Source of the DNA: a virus
Reading direction: 5' to 3' (one strand)
IMG/VR virus record: IMGVR_UViG_3300028800_000001
Span: 62,001-126,000 of that record
DNA length: 64,000 nt
In this document: one piece after another, positions 7,865-61,237 of the stretch
Position numbering within the stretch: position 1 is the first letter of the stretch
How the letters are laid out: every line of letters begins with the position of its first letter
Notes under the pieces: generated by a model
The model's input: the letters and a program-made list of their open reading frames with translations, nothing else
Told to the model about the DNA's origin: nothing
The model's database searches: none
Program-made: the position numbers and the translations under genes

Positions 7865-7918
7865 AGCATAGCGTAAAATACAGAAAACGTCAAGCGTTTT
7901 TTCTCTGTATTTTCAGAA
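7865..7918 (-). promoter_or_regulatory. Promoter with conserved upstream element (copy 1)
   Basis: On the minus strand: TTCTGAAAATAC, an A-rich block, -35 TTGACG (7893-7888), 17 bp, -10 TATGCT (7870-7865). The upstream element lies inside the end of the HNH gene, and its TTGA supplies that gene's TGA stop. It drives the operon 7832 to 1. Confidence 0.9.
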
Positions 7919-8498
7919 GATACTGGCGTACTCGGCACACGTCCTTTGGCGCAATAACCAGCAAAAGATCAGGATGACGATCCCTTTTCAAGCTATCGCA
8001 CTCGTCACAGGCCGGAACACAATTATCCCAGGTGGTGCCACCCCCTTTCGATATCGGAACGAAATGATCCATGCGTTTCCACGGTCGCCTTTGGCAATAG
8101 GCACACTGCTGTGCGAAGTAGTCCAGCGTTTCTCTCCACTCTGTGAGCGTCAAGGTTGCTGGCGTTCCAGCTTTGAGCGCACGTTGTCTTTGACGCTGAA
8201 TATACGCCTTTGACGCATGCATTGGGAGCGGCTCAAGTTCTTGCGGCTGTTCTTCTATCTCAGGCGTCAAGTTGGTAAGAAATTCGCTATAGACTTGTTG
8301 CTGGTAGAGCGAGGTTGCAGAGGAAAGCAGCGCATGCCCCTCTGCAACCAGATCACATTCTGGTCTTCGTAGTAGTTTTAGAAGGTATTCGTGTGCCTGA
8401 TATTTTTCAGAGAACGCAATGGAGGCGTCAGGATGTGCCTCCATGTAGCGTTTTCCCAGGCGCATGAGCCCTGTATAATAGGCAATCAACTCTTTCAT
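7890..8498 (-). CDS. HNH endonuclease, second of a tandem pair, 202 aa
   Basis: The HNH domain lies at about residues 134-180: CAYCQRR, then RMDHFVPISKGGG with the catalytic His, then WDNCVPACDECDSLK. The two CxxC pairs bind the structural zinc. The helical N-terminal region may bind DNA or a partner. It is paralogous to the upstream gene. The last codons and the stop are made by the promoter element at 7.9 kb. It may be a homing-type or restriction-like nuclease; the target is unknown. Confidence 0.85.
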   Translation of the reverse strand: MKELIAYYTGLMRLGKRYMEAHPDASIAFSEKYQAHEYLLKLLRRPECDLVAEGHALLSSATSLYQQQVYSEFLTNLTPEIEEQPQELEPLPMHASKAYIQRQRQRALKAGTPATLTLTEWRETLDYFAQQCAYCQRRPWKRMDHFVPISKGGGTTWDNCVPACDECDSLKRDRHPDLLLVIAPKDVCRVRQYLLKIQRKNA

Positions 8499-9070
8499 TT
8501 TTTACTTTGTAAGTACGTTTGTACTCTCGCTAGATCATCTGCCGGAAGGCCAATGCCTTCACTGAGCAGCTTCACACCTTTCTCCTGATCACAATACGAA
8601 CAAGCTGGAACACAGTTGTCCCAGGCCGTTCCCCCACCACGCGTAATAGGGATAAAGTGTTCTAGACATTCCCACAGCGCACGCTGACAATACGCACAGC
8701 GGTGATGAAAGTATTCTAACGTCTCTTTCCATTGTTCAACAGTGAGAGTGGCAGCGCGCCCTGCACGCTTCGCACGCAAATTATGCCAGAGAATATAGGC
8801 ATCTACATCCGTATAACGCCCTCGCAGCAGCAAGAGTGATGGATTTTCAGCGCGTAGCGTCTCAAGAAAGGTAGTGTAGACATTTTTCTCTAATGACGAT
8901 TTTGCCTGAGAAAGAAGTCGCTCCCCTTCCATTTCCCAGGCGTCTTCGTTCTTCTTTAGAATGGTAAGGATGCTTGCATAAGCGTCTGCTTTTTGCTTGA
9001 GTACGCGATGACGCGTACTGTTTTGCAGCGCCACACCAAACAATTGCTCATAATGCGTATGCATATTCAT
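8495..9070 (-). CDS. HNH endonuclease, first of a tandem pair, 191 aa
   Basis: Same architecture as its neighbour: a helical N-terminus of about 125 residues, then CAYCQRA, LEHFIPITRGGG and WDNCVPACSYCDQEK, i.e. both zinc CxxC pairs and the HNH histidines. The stop overlaps the next start (ATGA). The two proteins align over most of their length, so the pair arose by duplication. Confidence 0.85.
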   Translation of the reverse strand: MNMHTHYEQLFGVALQNSTRHRVLKQKADAYASILTILKKNEDAWEMEGERLLSQAKSSLEKNVYTTFLETLRAENPSLLLLRGRYTDVDAYILWHNLRAKRAGRAATLTVEQWKETLEYFHHRCAYCQRALWECLEHFIPITRGGGTAWDNCVPACSYCDQEKGVKLLSEGIGLPADDLARVQTYLQSKK

Positions 9071-48698: not shown

Positions 48699-48716
48699 GG
48701 GTGCTATTTAGCACCC
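48699..48716 (-). terminator. Terminator-like hairpin overlapping the stop codon of gene 48704
   Basis: GGGTGCT/AGCACCC with a four-base loop that includes the end of the gene, followed by TCATTT. The T-tract is weak. Confidence 0.5.
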
Positions 48717-49051
48717 TTTTGTAAAATGGTCAGAAACAGGGGGATCAGCGCGTGATCGTAGCCACGTGAGTTGGCAAGATACTCTTGGAGATGGCGCAGG
48801 AGCGCAGGGGCAACCTCTTCTTCGGTCACATCATCCTCTAAGATATACTCTTCTTCTGGAGAGACTTTCAGATCACCTTTTTTATGTTCACTATAAAGGA
48901 GCACGATTGTATGCTGTGTTGCGCTCTTGCTCCTTACTTTGACGTAAACACTCGCCTGCTCACGCCAACGATTGCCAGGACGACGATAGAGCAGTTTAAA
49001 ACTATCACTCTCTATCGTCACGCTATCAAGGACACCTGCTTTATAATTCAT
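48704..49051 (-). CDS. Hypothetical protein, 115 aa, 5' end beside the IscB element
   Basis: Beta-rich N-terminal half (VYVKVRSKSATQHTIVLLYSEHK), helical C-terminal half; not recognised. ATG 49051 is only nine bases from the right-end hairpin of the IscB element and has no ribosome site, so the insertion probably removed the native translation signal or original N-terminus. Confidence 0.6.
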   Translation of the reverse strand: MNYKAGVLDSVTIESDSFKLLYRRPGNRWREQASVYVKVRSKSATQHTIVLLYSEHKKGDLKVSPEEEYILEDDVTEEEVAPALLRHLQEYLANSRGYDHALIPLFLTILQKGAK

Positions 49052-49111
49052 ACAATTGCGGCAAGGAAACCCTGTGCTTTTAAGCCAGGGAGGAATTGCC
49101 GTCTCTCCTCT

Positions 49112-50395
49112 CTAATAACTATAGCCATCGATTTTGTACAACGACTGACAATATCTATAGCTAATTCCTTCAGTAACTCCGTTTTTCGTTGCAATATTAA
49201 AGCTTCCGGTAGAGCGTATTGCAACCTTTCCAATGTATGTACCCGTCTTTTTCCCTTTTGTGATAATGGCTTTTACGATGTCACCGGTTTGAAAACCATG
49301 CACAACCTTTGCTTGCTTTGGCCCTGTTCTTGGGAAGCCAAAGCAATTCATTCTGCACATTTGTCTCGATCCATGCCCAATAGCTTTTATATGCAAAGGT
49401 TGAATATCTCTAAGCGATAGTATTTCAGGGGTACTTTTGCCTACACATACCGCATCAATCCAATGTTCTTTTGAAAGTTGCCTCAAAGAACGATTGTATT
49501 TTGTTAGTCCACCAGAGCCAACTTCAACAGGCAATCCAGCTTTCTTTAATTCCTCATATAATCGCCACCTTGTACTATTCACCGCAGCCGCATCTTTGAG
49601 CGGCTTCTTTAGTTGCGCAAGAATCTTATCCAGTCGCTTCTTGTCATGTTGCAAGAAATCCTGAATATCTTTCGTGTCTTTCTTTTTATTGCATGGTTCG
49701 CAAGCCAAACAAAGATTAGAGATTCGATCCGAACCGCCCTTTGATCTTGCTACTACATGCTCAATCTCCAGAGGCACATTCTCAGCGTCACAGTAACCGC
49801 ATTTTCGCTCCCATTTTTCTAATAGGTACTCTCTAATCTCATAGCCTTGCAGTGTACCTTGTTGATATTCAAATCCTGATATTTCTGGATTTTCCATTTT
49901 TTGCAGATCAAAGCGAACCAATTCTTGCGAGATAGCAACAAGGTTGCAAAGCAATCTCAGCTTTCTCATCCACGTAAGGATATTTTGTATTCTGCTCTCA
50001 AGCGATGGCGCTATCCAACCTTTCTTCTTGTTCCTACGATTAAGAAAACGTGGCTGACGATATCTTGTTTTTCTTTGTCTACGCGACCTTCGAATCATTT
50101 TCCTATCGGCAAGCGCTTTTCCAATAGTGTTCCCACGATGTTCAAGTTCTACGCCAAAGACAACTTCACCCGACTGATCATTTACAATGGCGATACCGGT
50201 TGTCTTTGAACCAGGATCAAGCTTTATTCGCAATGGCTCAACAATTGGATTATTTACTTCTCGTTTTAAGACGATTGTAAACGGATATCTTTTAAAAACG
50301 GCTGCTTTTCCTGAAGAGAGCAATCTCCTTGCTTCCCCTGGATGTACCGGATTTAGAATCTGTTTCTTCGTATCTAATACAAACACTTTTAACAT
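49112..50395 (-). CDS. iscB: IscB RNA-guided nuclease, 427 aa
   Basis: IscB is the ancestor-type relative of Cas9 that uses an omega-RNA to nick and cut DNA. Domains in order: PLMP N-terminal domain (LDTKKQILNPVHPGEARRLL), RuvC-I LDPGSKTTGIAIV with the catalytic Asp, an Arg-rich bridge helix (RRSRRQRKTRYRQPRF), RuvC-II VAISQELVRFD, HNH with CGYCDAENVPLEIEHVVARS and CEPCNKK, RuvC-III HWIDAV, and a C-terminal target-motif-interaction domain. All catalytic residues are visible, so it looks intact. ATG 50395 matches the usual MLKVFVLD start; the upstream in-frame extension overlaps the guide RNA. Confidence 0.93.
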   Translation of the reverse strand: MLKVFVLDTKKQILNPVHPGEARRLLSSGKAAVFKRYPFTIVLKREVNNPIVEPLRIKLDPGSKTTGIAIVNDQSGEVVFGVELEHRGNTIGKALADRKMIRRSRRQRKTRYRQPRFLNRRNKKKGWIAPSLESRIQNILTWMRKLRLLCNLVAISQELVRFDLQKMENPEISGFEYQQGTLQGYEIREYLLEKWERKCGYCDAENVPLEIEHVVARSKGGSDRISNLCLACEPCNKKKDTKDIQDFLQHDKKRLDKILAQLKKPLKDAAAVNSTRWRLYEELKKAGLPVEVGSGGLTKYNRSLRQLSKEHWIDAVCVGKSTPEILSLRDIQPLHIKAIGHGSRQMCRMNCFGFPRTGPKQAKVVHGFQTGDIVKAIITKGKKTGTYIGKVAIRSTGSFNIATKNGVTEGISYRYCQSLYKIDGYSY

Positions 50396-50399
50396 TTTT

Positions 50400-50640
50400 T
50401 GCTCTTTCAAGCCTCCGCTTTCGCGGGTAATGGTCAACTCGACAATGTTACAAAACGGTTTTGTATGATTACTACACTGGCTTTACCCTTCCGCCTGTTT
50501 AATAGTAATCCGCAGAGGATAAGACTGTTGAAGCATCCTATCGTGCCTATATATTCGCTTTTAACGTAGATTTTCTTTCAAATCTGAGTCTGGTCAAATT
50601 GGTGGGCTCTCACAAGCCCCTGTGTTTTAATCAGGGGTAT
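50400..50640 (-). ncRNA. Probable omega-RNA of IscB
   Basis: About 240 bases between the left-end hairpin and the iscB start carry no gene. The minus strand begins with the CCCCTG/CAGGGG hairpin, continues with paired segments (for example GCTTGTGAGAGC) and ends CCCGCGAAAGCGGAGGCTTGAAAGAGC just before ATG. This is the normal place and orientation for an omega-RNA, whose guide would extend 5' into the flanking DNA. Exact ends not determined. Confidence 0.65.
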
Positions 50641-50672
50641 TTGACACTTCTTCTGACTGCGCGCCCCTGCCA

Positions 50673-51149
50673 CTATCGTTGCGATGTCCATCCATCACCC
50701 TTCTCCATAGCAGCACGAGCAATGTCTTCCAAAAAATCTGGAAAAGTTGTTTCACCGCTTTCGTGCGAGTACCACCAATTCCGTAACACAGTGGATGCCC
50801 GTTGTTCGGATAAGCCACCCAAAGTTCGTTGATTTGCCTTACTGATATGAATCCAGTCTTTTTTGTCATAATATTTATATCTCCTCTCTCCCTCTTGAGA
50901 AAACCCTTCCTGCTCCAAAAGGGGCACGTAGACACTCTCCAGAATAGAATCTGTGTAATTAAGATAATTTGCAATCTTGGGATGATGCTTTTCTACATAC
51001 GCCTGCGCTTCACCTGCATAATGCACAAGTGTTTCGCGCCCTGGTATAAGGCAAACATTCCAGCTCAGATCGCGCCCTGGAAAAAAGGCATAAATATCAA
51101 TGCCTTGACCGCCCTGCGAATACATTGCTTCTGTAATTGTGTACTTCAT
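50673..51149 (-). CDS. Hypothetical protein, 158 aa, related to its neighbour
   Basis: It shares the order IDIYAFFPGRDLSWNVCLIPGRE then AYVEKHHPKIANYLN with the upstream protein (IFFFARTEIYTIEMSWATTF..GH, AYLQDKYPKILAFLD), so the two are probably paralogues. ATG 51149 follows GAGGAGTAGC. The stop lies about 30 bases before the IscB left end. Confidence 0.7.
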   Translation of the reverse strand: MKYTITEAMYSQGGQGIDIYAFFPGRDLSWNVCLIPGRETLVHYAGEAQAYVEKHHPKIANYLNYTDSILESVYVPLLEQEGFSQEGERRYKYYDKKDWIHISKANQRTLGGLSEQRASTVLRNWWYSHESGETTFPDFLEDIARAAMEKGDGWTSQR

Positions 51150-51150
51150 G

Positions 51151-51615
51151 CTACTCCTCATCTTTCTTGAAAAAGCACGCTTCAACGAGCAGCGCTTCGT
51201 AGGCATCTGCATCGTTACTCCGTTTGTCTAAGAATGCCAGGATCTTTGGGTATTTGTCTTGCAAATACGCAATCGTTGCATCGTTGCCAAAGACCGCAAT
51301 AGTATGCCCAGGCAGAAAAGTCGTCGCCCAGGACATTTCTATCGTGTAAATTTCTGTCCTCGCAAAGAAGAAGATGCCGTGTTCGTCTTTTCGAAGCGTA
51401 TACCACTTCTTAATGAGCGAGAGCGGCATAAGTTCTCCTTCGCTCTCCGCAAGCTCCAAGCCGTCTAGAGTAAAGCGTACTGGCACATCCACGGTGTGTT
51501 CTTGCCCAAAGAAGTGCTCAAAATGATACACATCGCCGTAGCCAAAGTAGGCATGCACACCGGCTCTGCGAAGCGCCTCTCTTGCTTTGGGGTGAATGCT
51601 TGAAATGTTGGTCAT
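51151..51615 (-). CDS. Hypothetical protein, 154 aa, related to its neighbour
   Basis: Alpha/beta protein sharing blocks with the downstream gene. ATG 51615 overlaps the upstream TGA (ATGA) and is preferred over an upstream in-frame ATG. No known family. Confidence 0.7.
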   Translation of the reverse strand: MTNISSIHPKAREALRRAGVHAYFGYGDVYHFEHFFGQEHTVDVPVRFTLDGLELAESEGELMPLSLIKKWYTLRKDEHGIFFFARTEIYTIEMSWATTFLPGHTIAVFGNDATIAYLQDKYPKILAFLDKRSNDADAYEALLVEACFFKKDEE

Positions 51616-58430: not shown

Positions 58431-59969
58431 TTAATAGCGCTCACGCAATCGCACTACTGTCTGATAGAGCACCTCTGTGATCTCCTCAATCTTGCAGTAA
58501 TACGCCCTACGACCAAGAATTTCCCGATTCCCTGAGAGATCATGTTCATAACCCGTCAAGTAAATGACCAGGACTTCATCAATATTTTGCTCCTCAATGA
58601 GTCGGTCGGCAAGCACTTTCGCCTTGTTACGATCCGCAAAGCCACCATCAGTGAGGATACACAATATCTTTTGCGCATGTCCAAAGTCAGCGGTTTCCAG
58701 TATTTCCATTGCTTTTGCGATTTGTGTGCCACCGTCCGTATACGGATAGAGCAAACTTTCCATCAACAGTTCATCTGGTAGTTTTACCACCTTTGCGCTG
58801 TCAGCAAAGTCAATTTGAGCGCTGCGCACCAGAGGAATATCCGTGAGCGCTGCATGAAGCATCACGCACGCCTCTGCGTATTCGTTCATATCATCACACG
58901 TGGAGTCAGAAACGTCGCGCACAATCCACATGGTGAGCGCTGGAACAATGCGTCGTGGCTCTGTGAAACTGGGCTCCTCATCATCACTAAAGGAACCAGC
59001 ATACGCTTCGACAAGATCGGCAATCTCACCGCAATCATCACGCGTGCGCGCCTCATCCCATCCTTCGCGTGTCTGGCGGAAAATGGTATGTAGTTCTTGA
59101 ATTTCTTGAGCGCGCTTCGTAATTGTTTGGCGACAAAAGGCGTTGGTCTTGTCTTCTAGCGTCAGATCATGATCGCTTTGTCCAATTTCCTTTGCTTTTT
59201 CTTTGCTTTCCGCTGTGTCGTTAACTTGCTCAACGAGCTCACGAATACCACTGTCAGCAACGCTCTGACCTTCGAGCACCTGCTCAATTTCTTCGTCTCC
59301 AATGCCGACCTTGACGACTTTTCCACTCCTCAAGCTCTTTTGGAGCTCTGCATCGCTATCGCATGCTTCCAAAATCCACAGATAAATCGGGGTGCAAGAT
59401 TCTAACAGGTTTTGTCGTTCATTCACAATTGCACTAAGCGTATAAGGAAGGAAGAACGAAACAAAATTCATGTCGTCTACTTTTTCGTCAATGACACCAA
59501 AGCGTGTCACACGAAAAAGCGTTTGTAAGAGCGCAATGACCTTGCTCTTCGTTTTTTCATCGCTTGATTTAATGCCTTCAAGCGTTGGTTTAATAGAGGC
59601 TAGTGTCCAGCGTAGCGGCCCCGCGTGCGCAGGATAATCATACCAGAGGCTATTTTCGATCCTGCTGTCGTCAATAACATTGTCAATGTAGTGAAAGAGC
59701 CCATCGTCAAAGCTCTTTACACCAGAGAAACTTTCCGAGCGGATGTGGCAGACTTCATGGGTGAGAAACCCCAGGCTGTAGTACTCCAGAGAAACAAAAT
59801 CATGTACCCACGACTCTTCATAGTGCTTTTTAATTTGCGCATCATTGAGTGTAATAAGATAGTCCTGCCCTTTGGGCTGTACCCAGGCAATATCTTTATT
59901 GTCAGGTCGCCAGATGTGCTTTATTTCGACGCTATGCTCCGGTATCAATTGTAATGGCTGAAAAGGCAT
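58431..59969 (-). CDS. VWA-domain protein with HExxH-like N-terminus (CobT-like), 512 aa
   Basis: Partner-type protein for a MoxR/CobS ATPase. The C-terminal VWA domain starts near residue 345 with WIVRDVSDST (MIDAS DxSxS), continues with TDGGTQ and LTDGGFADRN, and ends at the C-terminus. The N-terminal part has GFLTHEVCHIR, an HExxH-like motif as in CobT and related putative metallopeptidases. An acidic middle region links them. The pair with the AAA+ gene just upstream suggests a chaperone or chelatase-like remodelling machine; the substrate is unknown. Confidence 0.82.
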   Translation of the reverse strand: MPFQPLQLIPEHSVEIKHIWRPDNKDIAWVQPKGQDYLITLNDAQIKKHYEESWVHDFVSLEYYSLGFLTHEVCHIRSESFSGVKSFDDGLFHYIDNVIDDSRIENSLWYDYPAHAGPLRWTLASIKPTLEGIKSSDEKTKSKVIALLQTLFRVTRFGVIDEKVDDMNFVSFFLPYTLSAIVNERQNLLESCTPIYLWILEACDSDAELQKSLRSGKVVKVGIGDEEIEQVLEGQSVADSGIRELVEQVNDTAESKEKAKEIGQSDHDLTLEDKTNAFCRQTITKRAQEIQELHTIFRQTREGWDEARTRDDCGEIADLVEAYAGSFSDDEEPSFTEPRRIVPALTMWIVRDVSDSTCDDMNEYAEACVMLHAALTDIPLVRSAQIDFADSAKVVKLPDELLMESLLYPYTDGGTQIAKAMEILETADFGHAQKILCILTDGGFADRNKAKVLADRLIEEQNIDEVLVIYLTGYEHDLSGNREILGRRAYYCKIEEITEVLYQTVVRLRERY

Positions 59970-60065
59970 AAGAATACACCTCCTTTTTGAGATGATTTTA
60001 AATGTAAGAGAGACAAACGCGTAAGGAGTGCAACGATGAGTATTTGGTACGCGTTTGTCTCCTTC

Positions 60066-60117
60066 AGTATACCTGCTTTCGCAAGAAATGTCAATAAATT
60101 TCTAAGTATTTTCAGAA
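60066..60117 (-). promoter_or_regulatory. Promoter with conserved upstream element (copy 17)
   Basis: TTCTGAAAATAC, a shortened A-block, -35 TTGACA, 17 bp, -10 TATACT (60071-60066). The span is 52 bp. It drives VWA, the 57844 protein, sigma and dCMP deaminase. Confidence 0.87.
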
Positions 60118-60118
60118 C

Positions 60119-61237
60119 TTACCAGAGTTTGCCTGCCAATTCATCTTTTACCGTTCGTCCGTGGACGCCTTGTCCGTCAATCGGCATGCCATGCCCTACA
60201 CTTGCCAAAATTTCGTTACGCACCTTTTGGCCGCCAATATAGCTGACGTATTTCTTCATCTCAATAACGCGTGGATCAGCCAGTTCATTACGAGACACGG
60301 CAGGGTTGTCACCATACATATAATCGTAGAGCCGTTTTGTAAGCGGAGCGACAGCCACCCCTGGCCCTTCGAATACATCATCCATCTTAATTGTTTTGGG
60401 ATCAAACGGAGTACGCTTATTCTTAAAGACGTAAGCGACCTGGGCACGTACAAGTGCCTGACTCATGTTACGAATGGAAAGCGGGTAACTCTCGGTACGT
60501 GCGGCGCGTACATAGCCGGTGACCAGACGTGCAAAACTTTCAGGAACGCTGAAGGGTTTGGGATTCCATACCTTCGGTGGATCGAGTGCCGCCCATTCTT
60601 CGCTCTTGAAGATTTGGCCGCGCTCGTACTTGTCAGAGGCCATCTGGATTGCAACAGCAAGCTCTGTCTCATAAAGCGGATAATCAAAGTTGTACGGATA
60701 GAAACGCTGGCCTGTGCTTTGTGGGATTTTGATATTGCCGACATGCTTGTCGTCATTACTACAAAACATGATGCGGAAGTACTTATTCGCTTCAACGAAC
60801 ATGTCACCGGTCGCTGTCACACTGTCCTCATCCAATACGGTGTTGTACATCGTAATGCCGGAAGCATCTCGTGCATGCGTAAGCTCGTCAATGATGACAG
60901 CCGCGCCTTCGCTCATCGCCGTCGCGACGATACCGAGCACATCTTGCGTGCTGCCAGCAATCAGACGGGTACCAGCAATCGCTTTCGTTTTGGTAACCTC
61001 TGGACTATTTTGAAAGTAGTAAAGATTGCAGCCTACGCGCTCACAATATTTCGCCATAACGAGCTTGGCGAAGTGTGTTTTGCCGGAGCCAGAGGGGCCA
61101 ATAAGATAGGGCACAAAGCCCATATAAATGAGCTCCAATATTTCTTCAGCCCGTTCTAAAAGGTCAACGCCGGTAATGCCCCGCTCCTTAATTTTTACTA
61201 AATCAAGCGGGGTGAACTTCTCTGCGGTAATAACCAT
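60119..61237 (-). CDS. AAA+ ATPase, MoxR/CobS type, 372 aa
   Basis: Hexameric-type ATPase expected to act with the VWA protein. Walker A is GPSGSGKTHFAK (about residues 42-53), Walker B AAVIIDELTHA (about 112-122), and FCSNDD is a sensor-1-like Asn block. It lacks the N-terminal domain of larger AAA+ proteases, as usual for MoxR/CobS. CobS-like proteins also occur in T4-like phages, where their role is unresolved. It has its own promoter. The stop lies one base before the next promoter element. Confidence 0.87.
   Translation of the reverse strand: MVITAEKFTPLDLVKIKERGITGVDLLERAEEILELIYMGFVPYLIGPSGSGKTHFAKLVMAKYCERVGCNLYYFQNSPEVTKTKAIAGTRLIAGSTQDVLGIVATAMSEGAAVIIDELTHARDASGITMYNTVLDEDSVTATGDMFVEANKYFRIMFCSNDDKHVGNIKIPQSTGQRFYPYNFDYPLYETELAVAIQMASDKYERGQIFKSEEWAALDPPKVWNPKPFSVPESFARLVTGYVRAARTESYPLSIRNMSQALVRAQVAYVFKNKRTPFDPKTIKMDDVFEGPGVAVAPLTKRLYDYMYGDNPAVSRNELADPRVIEMKKYVSYIGGQKVRNEILASVGHGMPIDGQGVHGRTVKDELAGKLW

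What the first reader, a model, noticed from the sequence alone, without database searches (positions are those of the whole stretch)
49052..50645. Transposase-less IscB element inserted between two operon genes
An intact IscB with left and right end hairpins and a 240-base omega-RNA region sits in an otherwise tight gene string. The next gene downstream (48704) starts nine bases after the element's right end and has no ribosome site, so insertion probably altered its expression. The guide should derive from DNA just upstream of the left end (above 50640), so the nuclease may target the empty site and promote retention of the element.
Basis: partly seen in the sequence, partly recalled or inferred. 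Interest (0 to 1): 0.6.

Follow-up and report, generated by a model that had tools for sequence, protein, structure and literature searches.

The report
Phage IscB element at a start codon
A large bacterial virus carries a small RNA-guided DNA-cutting element lodged exactly between the ribosome-binding sequence and the start codon of one of its genes, and related elements tend to land in the same kind of spot and may bring a replacement ribosome-binding sequence with them.

Summary
Window 49052-50645 (minus strand) is an intact IscB/HEARO (OMEGA) element in a 327-kb phage record: IscB 427 aa with RRXRR and HNH domains, a HEARO omega-RNA at 50427-50645 (136 bits), both end hairpins, and no Y1 transposase match in the record. 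This is a known kind of element, and most IscBs lack a transposase. Comparison with 58 other copies corrects one detail: the nine bases before the downstream ATG belong to the element, so the gene starts flush against its right end. Across 59 readable copies the next four bases are ATGA in 52 (probable target-adjacent motif). Thirty of 57 lie directly 5' of the start codon of an ORF of at least 100 codons, against 7.6% of background ATGA sites. Two natural empty sites in Vreelandella confirm the ends. Many right ends, this one included, carry GGAG just before a hairpin that ends a few bases before the AUG, like the split ribosome-binding sites of T4 genes 38 and 25. Insertion may therefore swap the ribosome site rather than abolish it; that step is inferred. 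No empty relative of the phage locus was found, so retention by targeting is plausible but untested.

The parts
49052..50645 (-). Whole IscB/HEARO element, 1594 bp, from GTCAA to the base before ATGA
   Evidence: Ends by alignment with other copies; two natural empty sites in related elements
50427..50645 (-). HEARO omega-RNA scaffold
   Evidence: RF02033 136.4 bits, E 3.2e-28, full length
50617..50637 (-). Left-end hairpin (CCCCTG...CAGGGG), first stem-loop of the omega-RNA
   Evidence: Sequence and HEARO alignment
50646..50665 (-). Left flank that would be transcribed as the guide (about 16-20 nt; ends ...CAGTCAGAAGAAGT)
   Evidence: Position next to the HEARO 5' end; the only exact match of its last 14 nt in the record. 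Guide length recalled from the literature
49112..50395 (-). IscB, 427 aa; RuvC-I D60, E158, HNH H213/N227, RuvC-III D314, RRXRR bridge region at 102
   Evidence: Pfam, PHROG 2214 3.5e-140, solved IscB structures, residue positions; roles assigned by motif
49105..49110 (-). GAGGAG, candidate Shine-Dalgarno carried by the element just 5' of its right-end hairpin
   Evidence: Bridged-SD scan: GGAG, 3 nt, 6-bp stem, 7 nt, ATG; P(unpaired) 0.52
49059..49101 (-). Right-end hairpin, outer stem CGGCAA/TTGCCG
   Evidence: Folding, stem probability 0.92
49048..49051 (-). ATGA: probable target-adjacent motif and start codon of the next gene
   Evidence: ATGA follows the right end in 52 of 59 readable copies
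48704..49051 (-). Downstream gene, 115 aa, no family match
   Evidence: ORF; no Pfam or PHROG match; no viral relatives
50673..51152 (-). Upstream gene, 159 aa, ends 27 bp before the element; weak DUF1398 match
   Evidence: ORF; Pfam E 0.0052, below cut-off

Best explanation
This is a HEARO/IscB (OMEGA) mobile element in a jumbo phage, inserted precisely between the ribosome-binding region and the ATG of the 115-aa gene. Shown by sequence: element boundaries by homology, intact IscB, omega-RNA, ATGA abutting the right end. Inferred: the omega-RNA carries the left-flank sequence as guide, so IscB would recognise the empty site (left flank followed by ATGA) in uninserted copies or co-infecting relatives. 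Cutting there would favour repair from the inserted copy, giving retention and homing-like spread without an own transposase. Also inferred: the right end offers GAGGAG, then a hairpin, then 7 nt, then AUG, a split ribosome-binding site that could keep the downstream gene translated, so insertion at start codons is tolerated.
For: IscB and HEARO intact. Left end constant at GTCA in copies with unrelated flanks, and right end constant up to ATGA. The next four bases are ATGA 52, GTGA 3, ATGG 3, ATCA 1 of 59. Two empty sites: the nth locus of G002 at 92% identity across the junction, and the cytochrome c locus of G001 (87%) and G037 (83%), with ATGA intact and no target duplication. In 30 of 57 copies that ATG/GTG starts an ORF of at least 100 codons, versus 105 of 1390 background ATGA. 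SD core in the left flank in 24 of 57, versus 7.7% of background. Bridged SD in 25 of 59, versus 3.2 expected from shuffles and 38 of 905 flank ATGA. Window SD P(unpaired) 0.52, stem 0.92. Split SD-hairpin-AUG sites work in T4 genes 38 and 25 (PMC3014915, passages). The relative IsrB uses an NTGA motif (PMC9581776, passages).
Against: No empty site or any relative of this phage locus was found, so here the ends rest on homology alone. Viral rows are mixed: only 2 of 5 in the set sit at an ORF of at least 100 codons, and 3 of 5 lack an element SD by my rule. In the Nodularia phage the guide did not come from the present flank, and it has no match with up to 2 mismatches in three related phages, so guide-flank agreement is not universal. 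A stem with GGAG in this position also arises in 16% of shuffles of this window element. Ardenticatenales 'direct' SDs are buried in the stem arm. No expression or cleavage data exist here.
Confidence: 0.6

Rival explanations
1. Ordinary IscB element whose position at a start codon is only a by-product of an ATGA target motif plus selection against insertions inside genes; GGAG before the hairpin belongs to DNA-end recognition or is chance, and the downstream gene is translated poorly or by coupling.
For: ATGA follows nearly all copies, also those not at start codons (27 of 57 fail the start-codon test). The right-end hairpin is expected for DNA transposition anyway. Five of 10 cyanobacterial and 3 of 5 viral right ends lack any element SD. 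The IscB stop codon lies about 60 nt upstream of the ATG, so reinitiation is possible.
Against: Element SDs (direct or bridged) in 45 of 59 versus 112 of 905 background ATGA. The outer stem is kept with different bases in Vreelandella variants L121 and L158 while GGAG stays.
Confidence: 0.35
2. Domesticated element: a fixed phage gene used against competing phages or host sequences, with a guide that no longer matters for homing.
For: Single copy, no transposase in the record. The Nodularia phage IscB carries a guide unrelated to its present site.
Against: Here the guide joins an ATGA in the reconstructed site, as expected for a recent or still coupled insertion. No other match of the 14-nt guide with up to 2 mismatches in the record is followed by NTGA.
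Confidence: 0.12
3. Dead remnant: IscB or the omega-RNA no longer functions.
For: No functional data; transposase absent.
Against: Full-length ORF, intact motifs, full HEARO match, both end hairpins.
Confidence: 0.08

Closest known systems
IscB / HEARO (OMEGA) elements, Rfam RF02033
   Same: RRXRR, split RuvC and HNH domains, HEARO omega-RNA directly 5', hairpin ends, ATGA after the right end; mostly without a transposase (PMC9755519 section 9)
   Different: Lies in a jumbo phage; 66% identity at most to the nearest row (a viral contig)
IsrB (Desulfovirgula thermocuniculi and others)
   Same: Same omega-RNA logic; target motif NTGA/TTGA, ATGA also cut (PMC9581776, passages)
   Different: IsrB lacks HNH and nicks; this protein has HNH
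OgeuIscB / OrufIscB / TbaIscB (solved IscB structures)
   Same: Sequence match across the N-terminal, RuvC and HNH regions
   Different: OrufIscB motif NTAAA and OgeuIscB-variant motif NWRGNA (PMC13180657, passages); here ATGA is predicted
Split ribosome-binding sites of T4 genes 38 and 25
   Same: SD and AUG separated by a hairpin that brings them close (PMC3014915, passages)
   Different: Here the hairpin is a transposon end and the arrangement is only predicted
Phage homing endonucleases and IStrons
   Same: Selfish insertion tolerated by the host gene; target is the empty allele (recalled)
   Different: RNA-guided; no splicing; would act by replacing the ribosome site

Membership tests
IscB protein family | RRXRR/bridge region with split RuvC and an HNH insertion | tested here: met
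   Pfam RRXRR 233.6 bits and HNH 41.1 bits over cut-off; IscB chains in PDB
IscB protein family | Catalytic residues present | tested here: met
   D60, E158, H213, N227, D314 found at the expected motifs; roles assigned by motif and alignment, not by assay
HEARO omega-RNA (RF02033) | Structured RNA just 5' of the ORF, over gathering score | tested here: met
   136.4 versus 83 bits, full model
ISC mobile element | Discrete ends with hairpins; flanks differ between copies | tested here: met
   Relatives' ends and two empty sites; no empty site for this copy
ISC mobile element | Y1 transposase in the element | tested here: not met
   No PF01797 match in the whole record; absence is common in the family
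OMEGA guide system | Guide equals the left flank and the target is followed by the motif | tested here: inconclusive
   Position and ATGA fit; the Nodularia phage copy does not fit its present site
OMEGA guide system | RNA-guided cleavage | not testable with these tools
   Needs a biochemical assay
Split ribosome-binding site (T4 gene 38/25 type) | SD, stable hairpin, AUG at short effective spacing | tested here: met
   GGAG + 3 nt + 6-bp stem + 7 nt + ATG; stem 0.92, SD unpaired 0.52
Split ribosome-binding site (T4 gene 38/25 type) | Translation depends on the hairpin | not testable with these tools
   Needs a reporter assay

The most novel reading that the evidence does not exclude
IscB/HEARO elements are specialised to invade translation start sites. 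Their guide contains the host gene's ribosome-binding region, their target motif ATGA is the start codon itself, and their right end carries a portable ribosome-binding site, split by the transposon hairpin in many lineages, that takes over translation of the invaded gene. This makes insertion upstream of essential genes tolerable, in bacteria and in phages.
Probability: 0.35. Interest if true: 0.66.

Novelty: new member of a known kind. Interest (0 to 1): 0.42.

Why it matters
IscB is the ancestor-like relative of Cas9, and how these elements persist without a transposase and without killing host genes is open. A target motif that doubles as the start codon, together with a right end that may supply a new ribosome site, would explain how they sit in front of core genes such as endonuclease III and glycogen synthase homologues (named from N-terminal sequence), and would give a directly testable rule for their spread in phages.

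Tried and rejected
Search for the phage's own empty site: protein scans with the downstream, upstream and 46767-48197 genes found no usable relative (L012 matches only 30 residues). BLASTN of the upstream flank in the phage collection gave no match, and an exact junction pattern in viral contigs gave none. The tools state that near records may be left out.

Nodularia phage kac68v162 against kac65v151 and kac68v161 gave an IscB presence/absence pair, but that insert carries what looks like 27 nt and 14 nt of older flank, so it does not show the primary insertion site.

Other guide targets in the phage: four places with 2 mismatches in 14, none followed by NTGA. A promoter/terminator scan gave nothing clearly above shuffles. 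No tRNAs in the window.

A stricter start-codon test that also forbade any upstream ATG/GTG/TTG gave 7 of 26 versus 42 of 831 background; I replaced it because GTG/TTG triplets upstream are common. The looser test gave 15 of 24 and 30 of 57.

The automatic right-end finder misplaced some ends, so right ends were set by hand-read strings. Ends of Vreelandella (19) and Thiotrichales (11) copies follow from copy alignment, and these two groups alone give 16 of 30. Ends of single-copy lineages were read partly by looking for ATGA after the hairpin, which biases the ATGA count there. Of 84 entries, 59 were used; 25 were left out as broken or unread right ends, contig ends, another IscB type or duplicates.

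Papers: Weinberg 2009, Kapitonov 2015, Altae-Tran 2021 and one further paper looked up by DOI are not held. I recall, but could not check, that HEARO insertion before ATGA/GTGA was reported earlier; the ATGA motif is therefore not claimed as new. Searches listed no paper that I could see linking IscB insertion to start codons or ribosome sites; only PMC9755519 (passages and section 9), PMC9581776 (passages), PMC13180657 (passages) and PMC3014915 (passages) were opened, and the rest were seen as listings.

Full report
What is there. The window is bases 62001-126000 of a 327,295-bp virus record with typical large-phage genes: RNA ligases, polynucleotide kinase, dCMP deaminase, sigma factor. On the minus strand, 50395-49112 encodes a 427-aa IscB with strong RRXRR and HNH matches, PHROG 2214 and relatives among solved IscB structures. 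Directly 5' lies a full-length HEARO/omega-RNA at 50645-50427, 136.4 bits against a cut-off of 83. The whole record holds one HEARO and no Y1 transposase match.

Ends. I compared the element with relatives from viral contigs (6 loci), the phage collection, genome contigs (49 loci) and 60 further stretches taken from genomes rich in HEARO. In multi-copy genomes the left end is constant from GTCA onward while the DNA before it is unrelated, and the right end is constant through a short tail after the hairpin, followed by ATGA and then unrelated DNA.

Empty sites. Two insertions in Vreelandella could be compared with uninserted relatives: in front of an endonuclease III-like gene, and in front of a cytochrome c-like gene (both named from their N-terminal sequence). 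The joined flanks align straight through the junction, with ATGA intact and no target duplication; one comparison differs by one base at the junction. For the phage locus itself no empty relative was found.

Where these elements sit. For 59 of 84 entries the right end could be read. The next four bases are ATGA in 52, GTGA in 3, ATGG in 3 and ATCA in 1. Of the 57 with enough right flank, 30 have that ATG or GTG starting an ORF of at least 100 codons with an in-frame stop within 150 bases upstream in the joined site, against 105 of 1390 ATGA sites in the same flanks (binomial p about 4e-19; copies treated as independent). An SD core lies in the left flank in 24 of 57, against 7.7% of background sites. 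By group, start-codon sites are Ardenticatenales 5 of 9, Thiotrichales 5 of 11, Vreelandella 11 of 19, cyanobacteria 3 of 9, other 4 of 4, viral 2 of 5 including the window. A first smaller set gave 15 of 24, and a stricter rule gave 7 of 26 against 42 of 831. Insertion between SD and AUG is thus a property of the family, whether by targeting or by survival.

Does the element bring a ribosome site? In the window the IscB stop codon is followed by AGAGGAGAGA, the right-end hairpin (outer stem CGGCAA/TTGCCG), CAATTGT and the ATG. A scan for GGAG-type cores directly before a stem of at least 6 bp whose far arm ends a few bases before the ATG finds 25 of 59 right ends, against 3.2 expected from dinucleotide shuffles and 38 of 905 background ATGA. 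For the window alone the shuffle rate is 16%, so the single case is weak by itself. Counting also SD cores directly before the ATG, 45 of 59 right ends qualify against 112 of 905. Folding predicts the window stem at 0.92 and its SD unpaired at 0.52. Against this, the direct SDs in Ardenticatenales lie inside the stem arm and are predicted buried (0.00-0.07), those in Thiotrichales range from 0.00 to 0.50, and 3 of 5 viral and 5 of 10 cyanobacterial right ends have none by my rule. T4 genes 38 and 25 show that an SD and AUG parted by a hairpin can work (PMC3014915, passages).

Guide and target. By position the guide is the left flank, ending CAGTCAGAAGAAGT at 50646. In the reconstructed site this is followed at once by ATGA, as the NTGA motif of IsrB requires (PMC9581776, passages). 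The last 14 nt have no other exact match in the record, and the four 2-mismatch places lack the motif. Cutting of empty copies followed by repair from the inserted copy is the likely way it persists; this step is inferred from recalled work on related elements and was not tested.

A caution from phages. In Nodularia phage kac68v162 an IscB with a borderline HEARO (82.7 bits) sits inside an IS607 tnpB that is intact in kac65v151 and kac68v161. That insert seems to have brought 27 and 14 bases of older flank, an SD-ATGA site of its own, and its guide has no match with up to 2 mismatches in three related phages. So a phage IscB can move with its flanks, and guide and site can come apart. On a tree of 28 proteins the viral IscBs need 7 label changes, at least 3 on starred branches; the window pairs with viral contig L005 (97/98).

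Verdict. An ordinary but well-preserved member of the IscB/HEARO kind in a jumbo phage. The family-wide placement at start codons and the possible portable ribosome site are the part worth following.

Noticed in passing
L013 3780-5302 (Nodularia phage kac68v162) against L021 and L022: IscB inserted inside an IS607 tnpB that is intact in related phages; the insert seems to carry its own old flanks with an SD-ATGA site, and its guide has no match in three related phages.
   Followed up: partly
L143-L154, L119, L122, L124, L131, L135, L141, L142, L162: Short elements of about 350-460 bp with HEARO RNA and right end but no IscB match in between: apparent non-autonomous omega-RNA elements, also often in front of ATGA.
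   Followed up: partly
window 7890-9070: Two adjacent similar HNH-type ORFs (202 and 191 aa).
   Followed up: no
G000 160494-160670, 187611-187832, 189048-189299 (L004, L002, L003): Three further HNH-like matches to the IscB HNH region in the same record; no HEARO next to them.
   Followed up: no
phage collection hits H8-H16 (Staphylococcus phages): Proteins about 27% identical to IscB over residues 5-346 in several 141-146-kb Staphylococcus phages; one paper on Silviavirus phages mentions HEARO (listing only).
   Followed up: no
window 58431-61237: AAA ATPase-like ORF (372 aa, weak clamp-loader and porphyrin-biosynthesis PHROG matches) beside a 512-aa ORF without PHROG match; they look like a MoxR/VWA-type pair (impression, not tested).
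   Followed up: no
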